Shown piece after piece: positions 4,494-54,949 of a stretch of 64,000 nucleotides of DNA. The position numbers and the translations under genes are program-made. The stretch covers positions 5,097,001-5,161,000 of the forward strand of contig NZ_CP147020.1 of NCBI RefSeq assembly GCF_037126435.1, in the 5' to 3' direction. Position 1 is the first letter of the stretch; each line of letters begins with the position of its first letter. The notes beneath the pieces were generated by a model. That model searched no databases and was not told the DNA's origin. It worked only from the letters and a program-made list of their open reading frames with translations. The DNA is from Bernardetia sp. ABR2-2B (GTDB lineage Bacteria; Bacteroidota; Bacteroidia; Cytophagales; Bernardetiaceae).

Positions 4494-4521
4494 ACTTCTG
4501 ACTTCTAAAATCTAACTTCTA
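4494..4521 (+). repeat. degenerate 7-bp tandem repeat after stop codon (ACTTCTA type)
   Basis: Four consecutive 7-mers ACTTCTG, ACTTCTA, AAATCTA, ACTTCTA begin 19 bp after the stop of the gene at 3638-4474. The period of seven places TGA or TAA in successive frames. Confidence 0.7.
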
Positions 4522-4532
4522 AATTTATTTTA

Positions 4533-6164: not shown

Positions 6165-6365
6165 ATGCCTAAGATGAAAACCAACTCAGGCGCAAAAAAA
6201 CGTTTTAAACTTACTGGTAGTGGAAAAATAAAGCGTAAACACGCATTTATGAACCACATTCTTACCAAAAAGTCTCACAAACGTAAGAAGCGTCTTGCTC
6301 AATTTGCTATCGTTCATTCAACTGACGAAAAGCGTATCAAAAAATTGCTTATCAACATGAAGTAA
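6165..6365 (+). CDS. rpmI: 50S ribosomal protein bL35
   Basis: The 66-residue, strongly basic product begins [20 protein letters not shown] and continues with the family signature [14 protein letters not shown]. This is the usual length for bL35. It is the middle gene of the conserved infC-rpmI-rplT order, but the spacing on both sides is unusually wide: 280 bp from infC and 381 bp to rplT. The start ATG is unambiguous and has no Shine-Dalgarno. Confidence 0.97.
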
Positions 6366-6374
6366 TAAGTATCA

Positions 6375-6392
6375 ATTACGAATTACGAATTA
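6375..6392 (+). repeat. 7-bp tandem repeat after rpmI stop (ATTACGA type)
   Basis: ATTACGA, ATTACGA and ATTA follow each other 9 bp after the rpmI stop codon. Confidence 0.7.
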
Positions 6393-6580
6393 GTTCTCTG
6401 AACTGAATATTTCATAATTCTGAAACTGATATTTATTTAATTTATATTTCAAGCAAATTGTTTTTTAACTTTCTATGACTAGACCTAACTAAGTTGTAGA
6501 ATAGGAAAACATCGCATACAAATCGTGTATGTATCTTTTTTAATTTAGGTTTCTTTTACCAGAGAATAGGCTCTTTTGAA

Positions 6581-6613
6581 GAATTACGAATTATGGATTG
6601 CGAATTACGAATG
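6581..6613 (+). repeat. 7-bp tandem repeat in rplT leader (GAATTAC type)
   Basis: GAATTAC, GAATTAT, GGATTGC, GAATTAC, GAATG run with an exact period of seven. The unit is a rotation of that at 6375-6392. Confidence 0.7.
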
Positions 6614-33029: not shown

Positions 33030-33036
33030 AATTTAC

Positions 33037-33072
33037 AGTTACCAGTAACTAGTAGAATAGTTACCAGTTAAT
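33037..33072 (+). repeat. 7-bp tandem repeat after lepA stop (CAGTTAC type)
   Basis: Units CAGTTAC, CAGTAAC, TAGTAGAA (8 nt), TAGTTAC and CAGTTAA begin 7 bp after the lepA stop codon. Confidence 0.75.
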
Positions 33073-37364: not shown

Positions 37365-37451
37365 AATCAATCGTTTTGAGCTTCAAGTGAAATCATCAAC
37401 GAGGATTTTCATTCCCCATTTTCTAATATCTAAATCCCAATCCCCCCAAAA

Positions 37452-50103: not shown

Positions 50104-50105
50104 AT

Positions 50106-50140
50106 CAGTTAGCAGTTACCAGTAAGTAGTAACCAGTTAA
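50106..50140 (+). repeat. 7-bp tandem repeat after DEAD-box gene stop (CAGTTAC type)
   Basis: Five exact 7-mers: CAGTTAG, CAGTTAC, CAGTAAG, TAGTAAC, CAGTTAA. It begins 2 bp after the stop codon. Confidence 0.8.
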
Positions 50141-50162
50141 ATACATTTAGTTTTGTTTGTAG

Positions 50163-50188
50163 GGACAAGGTACGCCTTGTCCTTTTTT
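50163..50188 (+). terminator. terminator after DEAD-box gene
   Basis: GGACAAGG (50163-50170) and CCTTGTCC (50175-50182) form a perfect 8-bp GC-richer stem with a 4-nt loop, followed by six T. Confidence 0.75.
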
Positions 50189-50195
50189 ATGTCTT

Positions 50196-50473
50196 TTATT
50201 CTGGTACAATTAATAACTCCTCTCCTTCTATTGGTTTTTCATCATGATTTATTGGAATAGCGCTGTACCAAAAAATGTTTTTACTCTCTCTATCTCAAAC
50301 TTTTTTTCAGAACCAAAATGAATAATTCGACCTCTTACTTTCCACTTTTTATTCGTTTGTTCTGATAACAATACTGTATCTTTAGTTAAACCATTTTCTT
50401 GATGCTGCAATTCAAGATAAATCCCTCTTCCTGTTATATTAAGGCTATGAATAACCATTAATTCGTTCTGCAT
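50196..50473 (-). pseudogene. PilZ-size hypothetical protein with frameshift
   Basis: From ATG 50473 a frame reads 74 residues to a stop at 50249 (MQNELMVIHSLNITGRGIYL, then WKVRGRIIHFG). Its last ten codons do not look coding. A second frame from about 50296 continues sensibly (NIFWYSAIP, INHDEKPIEGEELLIVPE) to a stop at 50196. The switch lies at a GA-rich run (50284-50296), a likely slippage or small deletion site; loss of one GATA would do. The joined product would be about 91 residues. A mutation or a sequencing error is equally possible. Function unknown. Confidence 0.55.
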
Positions 50474-50493: not shown

Positions 50494-50514
50494 TTCACTA
50501 TTTACTGGTAACTG
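50494..50514 (-). repeat. 7-bp tandem repeat after hybrid kinase stop (CAGTTAC type)
   Basis: Read leftward: CAGTTAC, CAGTAAA, TAGTGAA, starting 1 bp after the stop codon of the gene at 50516-52594. Orientation relative to its gene equals that of the blocks after lepA and the DEAD-box gene. Confidence 0.7.
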
Positions 50515-50515
50515 A

Positions 50516-52594
50516 TTATTTCCTCTCCATTTTTATCTGTAAAATTGCTTCTTCAATGCTTTTGTGAATAGCTTGTATTCTATCTGTTACTTCATTTATC
50601 TGACTTCCTTGTGAAAGCATTCTTCTAAGTTGATTTATCTGAACTTCTAACTCTTTTACTTCCAAAAGGCGAAGTGTTGCACGTATTTTATGATGAACTA
50701 AGGCAAGTTGAGTTTCGTAATCAGACAAATGAGTTGATTCTAAGATACGATTAAATTCTACCAAATCAGTTTCACTAAGCTCTAAGAGTTCGGTATAAAA
50801 TTCCTTGTCTGCTCCAGCTAGGTTTTTAAAATAAGAATAATTCAGACTACCTTTTTTATCATTTTCTTGTGGAACTTGTTTTTGAAGTTGTGTATAACTG
50901 TGTTGTGCAATCTTTTGATACAACTCATTGGGATTAAATGGCTTACTCAAAAAATCATTCATTCCTACTTGTACAATGCGTTCTCTTTCATTGAGCAAAG
51001 TTGAAGCTGTAAGGGCAATAATAGGTGTAAATTTGTTTGACTCCTTTTCCAAAAATCTAATTTGACGAGCAGACTCATATCCATCCATAACTGGCATTTG
51101 TAAGTCCATCAAAACAACATCAAAATTGTTTTCCTTGAATAAATCTACTGCAATTTGTCCATTTTCAGCTATTTGATATTTAGCCCCCCAATTATTCAAA
51201 AATTTCTTTACCAATATTTGATTGACTTTATTATCTTCTACAATCAAAACATTTACTCCTTTTAAGTTCTTGATATTTGTTGCATCAGGAAGGTTAGTTG
51301 AAATAGCCTGTACCTTTCCAATCTTGAAACCAAGCTGAAAACTGAAAGTAGAACCTACCATCATCGTACTCATTACATTAATTCTTCCTCCTTGAAGCTC
51401 AACTAGTTGTTTCGTAATGGCAAGTCCTAGACCTGTTCCTCCATACTTACGAGAAGTATCTTCTTCTGCTTGTGAAAAATCATCAAAAATAGAATTAATT
51501 TTTTCAGGTGAAATTCCAATTCCTGTATCTGAAACAGCAAATAGTAATTCTACTTTCTCTGTCTTGTGGTGTAGAAGACGAACCGTAATTGTAACTGTTC
51601 CCTCTTCTGTAAATTTTATAGCATTTCCGATAAGGTTATTCAAAATTTGGGAAAGACGTGTCGAATCTCCAAGTAATGATTTAGGAATTGCTTTATCAAT
51701 ATTGCTGCGAAGAAGAATGTTTTTTTCATCTGCACGAGCTTTAAAGATTTCTACTGTATTCTGAATCAGAGTAGGTAGGTCAAATTCAGCTTGTTCGAAA
51801 GCCATTTTTCCAGCTTCCATTTTCGAAATATCCAAAACACTATTAATAAGTGAGAGTAGATTTTGGGCAGAAAACTCTAGAATTTCTATATTTTCAGCCA
51901 TTTCTCCTTCCAAATTATCATTTTTGAGTAAATGTGTCATTCCGATAATAGCATTCAAAGGAGTCCTTATTTCATGGCTCATTGTCGATAAAAACTGTTC
52001 CTTTGTTTTTGTAGCTGCTTCTGCCTGTTCTTTTGCTCTTTTTAAATCTTCATTAGTTGCCATCAATTCAGAAGTACGTTCTTTTACTTTACTTTCCAAA
52101 TCTTCATTTACACTTTTAAGAGCATTTACTAATTGCCTATTTTCTGTACGCAAAGAATACGTTTCCAATGCTTTGTCAATAGTCAAAAGCATTTCATCTT
52201 TATTCCACGGCTTTACTAAATATCTGAAAATTCCACATTTGTTTATAGCTCTCATAATATCTTCTGTATCGCTATATGCTGTCAAGATAATACGAACTGT
52301 ATTTGGAAAGTTTTCTGCTACTCGCTCCAAAAATTCTACTCCTGTCATTTCTGGCATTTTTTGGTCAGAAATAACAAGTTGAATATCATTGCTTTCTAAA
52401 ACTTCTAAACCTTCCTTTCCAGAAATAGCTGTAAAAATAGTATAATGTCTTCTAAATGAGCTTTTAAAAATGCGCAAATTACTCTCCTCATCATCTACAT
52501 ACAAAATAGAAGATGTTTTTTTTGTTTTAGTTTGTATTGCTGTATCAGAAATAGAGGCTACTGAATTTGTTATATTATTTATGGAATCAGGCAT
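50516..52594 (-). CDS. hybrid histidine kinase REC-HisKA-HATPase-REC-HPt-like
   Basis: The 692-residue soluble protein starts with a receiver domain (YVDDEESNLRIF near 32-43, phospho-Asp in VISDQKMPE near 73-81, TAYSD), a coiled coil near 150-195, HisKA with STMSHEIRTPLNAIIG near 203-218, HATPase with NLIGNAIKFTEEG, SDTGIGI and GGTGLGLAI, a second receiver near 450-565 (LIVEDNKVNQ, VLMDLQMPVMDG) and a C-terminal helical domain with VHHKIRATLRLLEV near 640-653, probably an HPt-like domain. It has no membrane segment. Input probably comes through the first receiver. Confidence 0.92.
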   Translation of the reverse strand: MPDSINNITNSVASISDTAIQTKTKKTSSILYVDDEESNLRIFKSSFRRHYTIFTAISGKEGLEVLESNDIQLVISDQKMPEMTGVEFLERVAENFPNTVRIILTAYSDTEDIMRAINKCGIFRYLVKPWNKDEMLLTIDKALETYSLRTENRQLVNALKSVNEDLESKVKERTSELMATNEDLKRAKEQAEAATKTKEQFLSTMSHEIRTPLNAIIGMTHLLKNDNLEGEMAENIEILEFSAQNLLSLINSVLDISKMEAGKMAFEQAEFDLPTLIQNTVEIFKARADEKNILLRSNIDKAIPKSLLGDSTRLSQILNNLIGNAIKFTEEGTVTITVRLLHHKTEKVELLFAVSDTGIGISPEKINSIFDDFSQAEEDTSRKYGGTGLGLAITKQLVELQGGRINVMSTMMVGSTFSFQLGFKIGKVQAISTNLPDATNIKNLKGVNVLIVEDNKVNQILVKKFLNNWGAKYQIAENGQIAVDLFKENNFDVVLMDLQMPVMDGYESARQIRFLEKESNKFTPIIALTASTLLNERERIVQVGMNDFLSKPFNPNELYQKIAQHSYTQLQKQVPQENDKKGSLNYSYFKNLAGADKEFYTELLELSETDLVEFNRILESTHLSDYETQLALVHHKIRATLRLLEVKELEVQINQLRRMLSQGSQINEVTDRIQAIHKSIEEAILQIKMERK

Positions 52595-54810: not shown

Positions 54811-54949
54811 GAAGCTGTTTAAGAATACTCATTTTTCCTTAGAACTGGGTTGCAAACCCAGTTCTAAGGAAAATAATGCTGCCTTTGTTTGTGTTTTAGC
54901 GAAGTAACACCAACAAACATACCTATAAAATCCATTCTTAAACAACTTC
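54811..54949. mobile_element. 139-bp MITE-like foldback element with two inner palindromes
   Basis: Outer arms GAAGCTGTTTAAGAAT (54811-54826) and ATTCTTAAACAACTTC (54934-54949) differ at one position. They enclose a hairpin with about 20-bp arms (54832-54875, AGAACTGGGTT with AACCCAGTTCT) and the dispersed palindrome at 54884-54917. The outer arms resemble the ends of the element at 47904-48062. Confidence 0.7.
54884..54917. repeat. dispersed palindrome, GTTGTTGGTGT family (diverged)
   Basis: TTTGTTTGTGT and ACACCAACAAA surround TTTAGCGAAGTA; loop and arms match the copy at 45768-45801 with few changes. Confidence 0.65.

What the first reader, a model, noticed from the sequence alone, without database searches (positions are those of the whole stretch)
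50106..50140. Degenerate 7-bp tandem repeats placed directly after stop codons
Blocks of two to five 7-mers begin 0-19 bp after the stop codons of unrelated genes: 4494 (after 4474), 6375 (after rpmI), 33037 (after lepA), 50106 (after the DEAD-box gene), 50514 leftward (after the hybrid kinase) and weakly 55865. Three unit types occur (CAGTTAC, ACTTCTA, ATTACGA). Orientation relative to the gene is the same for all three CAGTTAC blocks. Because seven is not a multiple of three, units holding TAA, TAG or TGA place stops in all frames; this is a speculation about function and the ATTACGA block does not fit it well. Heptamer repeats (STRRs) are known from cyanobacteria; their position at gene ends here seems unusual.
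Basis: seen in the sequence. Interest (0 to 1): 0.72.

Follow-up and report, generated by a model that had tools for sequence, protein, structure and literature searches.

The report
Heptamer repeats pointing away from genes
Short blocks of a repeated seven-letter DNA word sit right beside genes in this bacterium, at gene starts as often as at gene ends and nearly always pointing away from the gene; the same layout appears with several different seven-letter words and in distant bacteria, which points to one general, still unexplained process.

Summary
The heptamer blocks are real. In a 1.264-Mb sample of the genome, intergenic DNA shows a strong excess at periods 7, 14 and 21 (period 7: 96 segments against 13.8 in shuffles). 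Six unit families give 158 arrays against 1.5 by chance. The stop-codon link is half of the pattern: arrays within 15 nt of a gene read away from it at stops (56 of 58) and at starts (54 of 54). This repeats in three congeners, another family of the order and other phyla. Sense-strand stops after genes are hardly enriched. The same layout is published for G-rich heptamers and was linked to G-quadruplexes (PMC4692102); here families without G-tracts obey it, so quadruplexes cannot be its general cause. New here: arrays persist at the same gene edge across species (12 of 26 against 4 of 259), and at some hand-picked loci the unit family is swapped while place and direction stay. Best reading (0.4): arrays are ends of small insertions, often facing pairs, placed by a DNA-level process blind to gene direction. 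The machinery is unknown.

The parts
50104..50139 (+). CAGTTAC-family (A) array, five units, directly after the stop of the DEAD-box gene, reading away from it; the block of the finding
   Evidence: score 34.2, outward
50497..50518 (-). A array at the stop of the convergent hybrid kinase gene, facing the first array
   Evidence: score 18.2, outward; inverted-repeat arms found
33036..33070 (+). A array after lepA, between the stop and a terminator-like hairpin; detected as 33036-33053 (18.4) and 33059-33070 (13.4)
   Evidence: an A array at the same edge in G001, G002 and G006, not in G003, G004, G005
6374..6392 (+).
   Evidence: 20.7; downstream flank falls in a cluster of 11 of 66 B arrays
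6579..6612 (+). second B array in the same intergenic region, 134 nt from the next called gene, inward by nearest edge
   Evidence: 30.8
4494..4525 (-). D array (ACTTCTA on the plus strand), 19 nt after a stop, reading toward the gene: an exception to the rule
   Evidence: 28.1, inward
37405..37445 (-). E array (GAATTGG type) 6 nt from the stop of a minus-strand gene, outward
   Evidence: 27.9; E array at the orthologous edge in G002, below threshold in G006, and no intergenic DNA at all in G001
   Evidence: 11.7

Best explanation
The blocks belong to a general class of gene-flanking heptamer arrays. An array is typically four to five units (89 of 158 are 28-37 nt), abuts the edge of a constrained sequence and has its nA[AG]T[TG]An strand reading away from it. 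I think arrays are the ends of small intergenic insertions: one array plus filler, or two arrays facing each other. They enter short linkers between genes and fill them, so the array ends up against the ORF; polarity comes from the array being the outer end of the inserted segment, not from recognition of start or stop codons. The array then stays with that gene edge, changes by 7-nt units, and can be replaced by an array of another family. SHOWN: place, polarity, indifference to start versus stop, reach across phyla, persistence at edges, family swaps at some loci, 7-nt length changes. INFERRED: that insertion is the mechanism, that short linkers are the target, that no transcript-level function is needed. 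The enzyme is unknown.
For: Outward polarity at both kinds of edge (110 of 112), also in other genomes. Arrays nearly absent from coding DNA (2 at score 18 in about 1.05 Mb) and fewer at divergent starts (8/306 against 46/571). Facing pairs at both edges of one IGR exceed expectation (15 against 3.7; 9 of 15 of one family). At one linker own, G006, G004 and G001 have 13-18 nt while G002 (104 nt) and G005 (141 nt) carry the same 30-nt B array followed by different bodies. Other array-free orthologous IGRs are short: 0, 4, 14, 35, 47, 54, 75 nt. Family swaps often concern both facing arrays, e.g. C/C to A/A or E/E. Downstream flanks are shared by 11 of 66 B arrays.
Against: Most array IGRs of at most 500 nt analysed have a single array (58 of 86). 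No target duplication or constant core was found, and no transposase was identified. In 91 orthologous IGR pairs with own against relatives, the six with an array only in own were not longer (median difference -4.5 nt). The linker gain rests on parsimony; no tree was built, and G006 could have lost the array. Persistence at edges would also fit selection. Six or more families sharing period and polarity are unusual for one transposable element.
Confidence: 0.4

Rival explanations
1. Functional gene-boundary sites: a protein or other machinery reads a loose nARTTAn heptad at both ends of genes, and selection keeps some outward array at given edges whatever its family.
For: Arrays persist at the same edge (12 of 26 against 4 of 259), even where the neighbouring gene differs (4 of 10). 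At one IGR both edges carry arrays in 7 of 7 species with changing families. Start edges with arrays block three frames toward the start in 62% against 12%.
Against: The rule is the same at starts and stops, so it is not tied to transcript direction. Arrays are missing in four genomes of three other genera of the family (family A pattern) and at many orthologous edges (14 of 26).
Confidence: 0.25
2. Break-end extension: an enzyme adds heptamer repeats to the 3' strand of DNA ends in intergenic breaks, as telomerase does at chromosome ends; two extended ends joined give facing arrays, one extended end gives a single array.
For: Predicts outward polarity on both sides whatever the gene direction, facing pairs of one family, whole-pair family swaps, variable cores and a fixed 7-nt step for unrelated units.
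Against: Array IGRs are not enriched at synteny breaks (14 of 38 against 101 of 247, p = 0.72). No such enzyme was sought or found. Does not by itself explain why arrays lie within 15 nt of ORFs.
Confidence: 0.1
3. Ordinary slippage microsatellites: chance heptamers expanded by polymerase slippage wherever DNA is not coding.
For: Length changes of 7 nt between orthologous arrays; a few very long pure arrays (132 nt in L017); published slippage idea cited in PMC4692102 and PMC4679880.
Against: Slippage gives no polarity; arrays have a typical length (89 of 158 at 28-37 nt) and recurring composite 30-mers at unlinked loci.
Confidence: 0.1
4. Hairpin elements: arrays are arms of fold-back elements selected for RNA or DNA hairpins, and polarity is hairpin geometry.
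For: In G025 many IGRs of 74-97 nt are two facing arrays around a short loop; 28 IGRs with several arrays show complementarity (mean z 3.06).
Against: Facing arrays are not more complementary to each other than to arrays of other loci (G025 26 pairs: 19.8 against 20.6, best in 0; genus 12 pairs: 16.8 against 18.4, best in 0). Single arrays show little complementarity to the rest of their IGR (58, mean z 0.53). Swapped pairs such as A/B or D/B are of different families.
Confidence: 0.07
5. G-quadruplex function, as proposed for GGGAATC and GGGGA(T/C)T repeats.
For: Same placement rule and four-unit preference in PMC4692102.
Against: Families A, B, C, D and F have no run of three G and obey the same rule.
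Confidence: 0.03
6. Stop-codon reinforcement after genes.
For: C, E and F arrays at stop edges block 2.4-3.0 sense frames on average.
Against: Equal occurrence at starts; three frames blocked in 29% against 20% of controls; B blocks 0.62, A 1.86 frames.
Confidence: 0.02

Closest known systems
G-rich heptameric repeats GGGAATC (Xanthomonas) and GGGGA(T/C)T (Nostoc PCC 7120), Rehm et al. 2015, PMC4692102 (abstract, passages, sections on intergenic repeats and discussion read)
   Same: Heptamers, preference for four units, intergenic, within 50 bp of ORFs on the antisense strand before starts and on the sense strand after stops, under-represented between divergent ORFs, some inverted pairs.
   Different: Units here (A-D, F) lack G-tracts and cannot rest on G-quadruplexes; persistence per gene edge and family swaps were not seen in what I read of that paper, which reports that most repeats lie between the same genes in two species with length and sequence variation.
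TAACTGA direct repeats of Beggiatoaceae, cyanobacteria and Bacteroidetes, MacGregor 2015, PMC4679880 (abstract, introduction, sections on related heptamers, cyanobacteria, Bacteroidetes and roles, and passages read)
   Same: TAACTGA is family A on the other strand. In Flexibacter litoralis 12 of 14 sets lie in forward orientation before a start and one in reverse orientation right after a stop, which fits the outward rule.
   Different: Read there as translation control at starts and as one favoured unit. Here six families and stops obey the same rule. Her Microcystis sample (24 sets) looks more mixed: eight in reverse orientation relative to a start, eight between stops.
STRR heptamers of cyanobacteria (Calothrix PCC 7601), known to me from citation in PMC4692102 and from memory only
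   Same: Tandem intergenic heptamers.
   Different: I could not compare units or placement; the original paper was not seen.
REP/GTAG palindromes and MITE-like elements (PMC3733652 seen only as a search listing)
   Same: Short, dispersed, intergenic, sometimes in inverted pairs.
   Different: No constant palindrome or core was found for the arrays, and facing arrays are not matched to each other.

Membership tests
Intergenic heptamer repeats (STRR/LSSR type) | Tandem 7-nt units, in excess of chance | tested here: met
   Period 7: 96 against 13.8 in shuffles; also 14 and 21; periods 9 and 11 about two-fold only
Intergenic heptamer repeats (STRR/LSSR type) | Intergenic, dispersed over the genome | tested here: met
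   48 of 60 sampled 20-kb stretches hold at least one array; 2 arrays at score 18 in coding DNA
TAACTGA repeats (PMC4679880) | Direct repeats of TAACTGA | tested here: met
   Own genome: 160 hits to CAGTTACCAGTTACCAG at up to 3 mismatches against 4 for the reversed pattern; met for family A only
TAACTGA repeats (PMC4679880) | Mostly just upstream of start codons | tested here: not met
   Family A within 15 nt: 12 at starts and 14 at stops
G-rich heptamers (PMC4692102) | Close to ORFs, antisense before starts and sense after stops | tested here: met
   110 of 112
G-rich heptamers (PMC4692102) | Runs of G able to form G-quadruplexes | tested here: not met
   Profiles of families A-D and F hold no run of three G; E has GG
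REP/MITE mobile elements | Conserved palindromic ends or core shared between copies | tested here: not met
   Inner flanks: weak motif only; facing arms not matched; a downstream flank is shared by 11 of 66 B arrays
REP/MITE mobile elements | Insertion with target duplication into empty sites | tested here: inconclusive
   Shorter array-free sites in relatives; no duplication noticed by eye at the one close gain
REP/MITE mobile elements | Moved by a transposase in trans | not tested
   No transposase family was searched for

The most novel reading that the evidence does not exclude
Bacteria of several phyla possess a telomere-like activity that adds seven-nucleotide repeats to the 3' strand of exposed DNA ends between genes. 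Each outward array marks such a capped end, facing pairs are two capped ends that were joined, and family swaps at one edge record repeated rounds with different repeat templates.
Probability: 0.08. Interest if true: 0.95.

Novelty: new variant of a known kind. Interest (0 to 1): 0.6.

Why it matters
Heptamer repeats have been assigned family by family to different roles: translation control for TAACTGA, quadruplexes for GGGAATC. One polarity rule shared by unrelated units and by distant phyla suggests one underlying process and shows that neither role can be its general cause. The rule, the persistence at gene edges and the swapping of unit families offer concrete tests of an open question, and bear on how untranslated regions and 'regulatory' repeats are read in many genomes.

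Tried and rejected
Stop-codon function: frame counts after stops do not support it; at starts the strand facing the gene is stop-rich, so I leave a role there open. Hairpin geometry as the cause of polarity: I favoured this after G025, where one locus seemed to have matched variant units, and dropped it when facing arms proved unmatched. Single arrays with a decayed partner arm: the other edge scores 12 or more outward in 8 of 58 cases, against 11 of 996 edges of array-free IGRs, and singles show little complementarity to the rest of their IGR; this explains few. Whole genes as cassettes: 6 genes with arrays at both ends against 3.1 expected. Inner motif AATRCRAATT: 25 IGR hits, about six of them right after arrays by eye; a 16-column motif search of inner flanks gave little information. 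Synteny breakpoints: no enrichment. Rfam on the window: no match at the gathering scores. Organism: not shown. A Bernardetia-like member of Cytophagales is a guess from memory (a congener, G001, is one contig of 4,919,337 bp).

Limits. Profiles were trained on the own sample; searches use other DNA or other gene definitions. The home-made gene caller misses small genes such as ORF 6165-6365, so the 6374 array was first counted as a distant inward one. The own sample covers C1 from 1 to 3.855 Mb in pieces plus the window, 1.264 of 5.377 Mb. G002 and G006 are close (about 97% at gene ends) and both are counted. Six loci were chosen by me for their arrays. A decoy with unit profiles read backwards gave 8 outward and 1 inward at own stops.

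Full report
CHECK OF THE OBSERVATION. Five of the six reported blocks are present at the stated places with clear scores; the sixth (55865) is not significant. To judge chance I took sixty 20-kb stretches of the same chromosome plus the window (1.264 Mb of 5.377 Mb), called genes with a codon scorer (1000 genes, 83% coding) and scanned 844 intergenic regions (IGRs, 196 kb) for periodicity. Periods 7, 14 and 21 stand out (96 against 13.8, 78 against 10.0, 55 against 9.4 in dinucleotide shuffles); periods 9 and 11 show about two-fold. At a stricter threshold period 7 gives 43 against 0.8. In 1.05 Mb of coding DNA the period-7 counts are 23 and 3.

FAMILIES. They resemble nA[AG]T[TG]An. Seven-column profiles find 158 arrays at score 15 against 1.5 per shuffle, and 140 against 0 at score 18. 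By my count of the lengths, 89 of 158 are 28-37 nt long; 13 of 24 D arrays are exactly 32 nt.

THE RULE. 112 of 158 arrays lie within 15 nt of a gene edge; random placement in the same IGRs gives 57 on average, at most 74 in 500 draws. Of these 112, 110 read away from the gene: 56 of 58 at stops, 54 of 54 at starts (p = 2e-30). At 16-40 nt the counts are 15 outward and 3 inward, beyond 40 nt 17 and 11. With genes of at least 100 aa and a high coding score: 50 of 52 at stops, 50 of 50 at starts. Without the gene caller, at stops of ORFs of 150 aa or more: 54 outward, 5 inward. Arrays per edge: co-directional starts 46/571, co-directional stops 40/571, convergent stops 18/240, divergent starts 8/306 (divergent against co-directional starts p = 0.001). 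The process follows gene edges, not stops; the window happens to show strong arrays only at stop edges.

REPLICATION. In loci of three congeners arrays within 15 nt are outward in 22 of 22 and 47 of 47 (four loci lie in both sets, and G002 and G006 are close relatives). In G025, of another family of the order, family A is outward in 38 of 38 (most of the 31 loci were chosen because they hold an A match, and two overlap in part). In 80 of these 112 loci, A arrays within 15 nt are 39 outward and 3 inward in cyanobacteria and 19 and 1 elsewhere; the other families are 21 and 7 in cyanobacteria and 2 and 1 elsewhere. All 112 loci, stop edges only: A 49 and 5, other families 27 and 7. The rule is thus strong but not absolute outside the genus. 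All seven genomes of the genus have many family-A hits; four genomes of three other genera of the family have none, and hits in the order are scattered.

EVOLUTION. Where an own gene edge has an array, the orthologous edge has one in 12 of 26 cases; where it has none, in 4 of 259 (p = 3e-11). Arrays can persist where the neighbouring gene differs (4 of 10), for example after lepA. In these 12 cases the family is the same. At the six loci that I chose for closer study the picture is mixed (arrays at score 12). L008:6410-6489 has arrays at both edges in 7 of 7 species, as C/C, B/B, A/B, A/B, A/B, D/B and A/C. L034:9378-9468 is C/C in three species, A/A in one and E/E in one; G004 could be anchored on one side only, without an array, and G006 had no match. 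L037:18441-18511 is F/F in three, a weak C/C in one and one-sided in three (F, C, F). L030:12826-12910 is D in four (D/D in one), B/B in one and empty in two. L043:5936-6114 keeps A in 6 of 6 genomes found. L014:17993-18131 shows only E where arrays exist (own, G006, G002, and one-sided in G005) and none in G001, G004 or at the one side readable in G003. Unit numbers often differ by sevens.

GAINS AND EMPTY SITES. Between G002 and G006, 153 IGR pairs give 13 with arrays in both, 137 in neither and 3 in one only, one of these a clear difference. There own, G006, G004 and G001 have 13-18 nt between two conserved blocks, G002 has 104 nt with a B array, and G005 has 141 nt with the same 30-nt array and another body; G003 could not be aligned. 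This is most simply a gain, but no tree was built. Other array-free orthologous IGRs are short: 0, 4, 14, 35, 47, 54 and 75 nt. This is why I read arrays as ends of segments inserted into compact linkers. Against it, six orthologous pairs with an array only in own show no length increase overall (median -4.5 nt).

WHAT IT IS PROBABLY NOT. Sense-strand stops after genes are little enriched (29% against 20% with three frames blocked). At starts the strand reading toward the gene is stop-rich (62% against 12%), and after stops the strand facing the gene is too (44% against 19%); this follows from TAA in most units and leaves a role at starts open. A hairpin cause is weakened because facing arms are not matched within loci and 58 of 86 IGRs analysed have one array. 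Synteny breaks are not enriched (14 of 38 against 101 of 247), which weakens the break-end idea without excluding it. Rfam has no match in the window.

PRIOR WORK. Rehm et al. 2015 (PMC4692102) report the outward placement and the four-unit preference for G-rich heptamers in two Xanthomonas and Nostoc PCC 7120, show quadruplex formation in vitro, and state that a role remains to be found. MacGregor 2015 (PMC4679880) reports TAACTGA repeats, mostly before starts in one Beggiatoaceae genome, and in some cyanobacteria and five Bacteroidetes. My eight searches of the held library listed no paper that by title or abstract states the rule for AT-rich heptamers or the family swaps. Most subscription journals are missing there, so this is not proof of absence.

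VERDICT. Real, more general than reported, and a new variant of a known kind: the polarity rule is known for G-rich units and is shown here for units without G-tracts, at starts and stops alike, and across phyla for one AT-rich family. I put insertion of small segments with heptamer ends at 0.4 and boundary function at 0.25, and keep telomere-like end extension as the bold reading.

Noticed in passing
window 54811-54949: About 139-bp MITE-like element with 16-nt inverted ends (94% complementary) and an inner 19-nt perfect palindrome; its IGR shares similarity with 24 other IGRs of the sample.
   Followed up: partly
window 50159-50182: GTAG followed by a palindrome (GGACAAGG TACG CCTTGTCC) and a T-run, 20 nt inside the first array; looks like a GTAG-tagged REP or a terminator. 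The name rests on a listed title only.
   Followed up: no
window 50249-50473, minus strand: A 74-aa ORF lies between the two facing CAGTTAC arrays; no Pfam match at E 0.001.
   Followed up: no
L241 and L244, with L238-L240 and L243: The same 30-nt B array sits at the same linker in G002 and G005 with quite different sequence behind it, while four other species have 13-18 nt there.
   Followed up: partly
L317 (G004), orthologue of L043:5936: The A array before this gene fills at least the 150 nt read in G004 (score 145), a large local expansion against about five units in its relatives.
   Followed up: no
L041:6472-6525 and L041:7075-7125: Two successive gene gaps carry nearly the same A array and the same following gene start, as after a tandem gene duplication.
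   Followed up: no
own-genome IGRs, e.g. L042:8655-9161: A frequent palindrome TTGTTGGTGTCGCT...ACACCAACAA occurs in roughly 30 sampled IGRs, often inside longer repeats.
   Followed up: no
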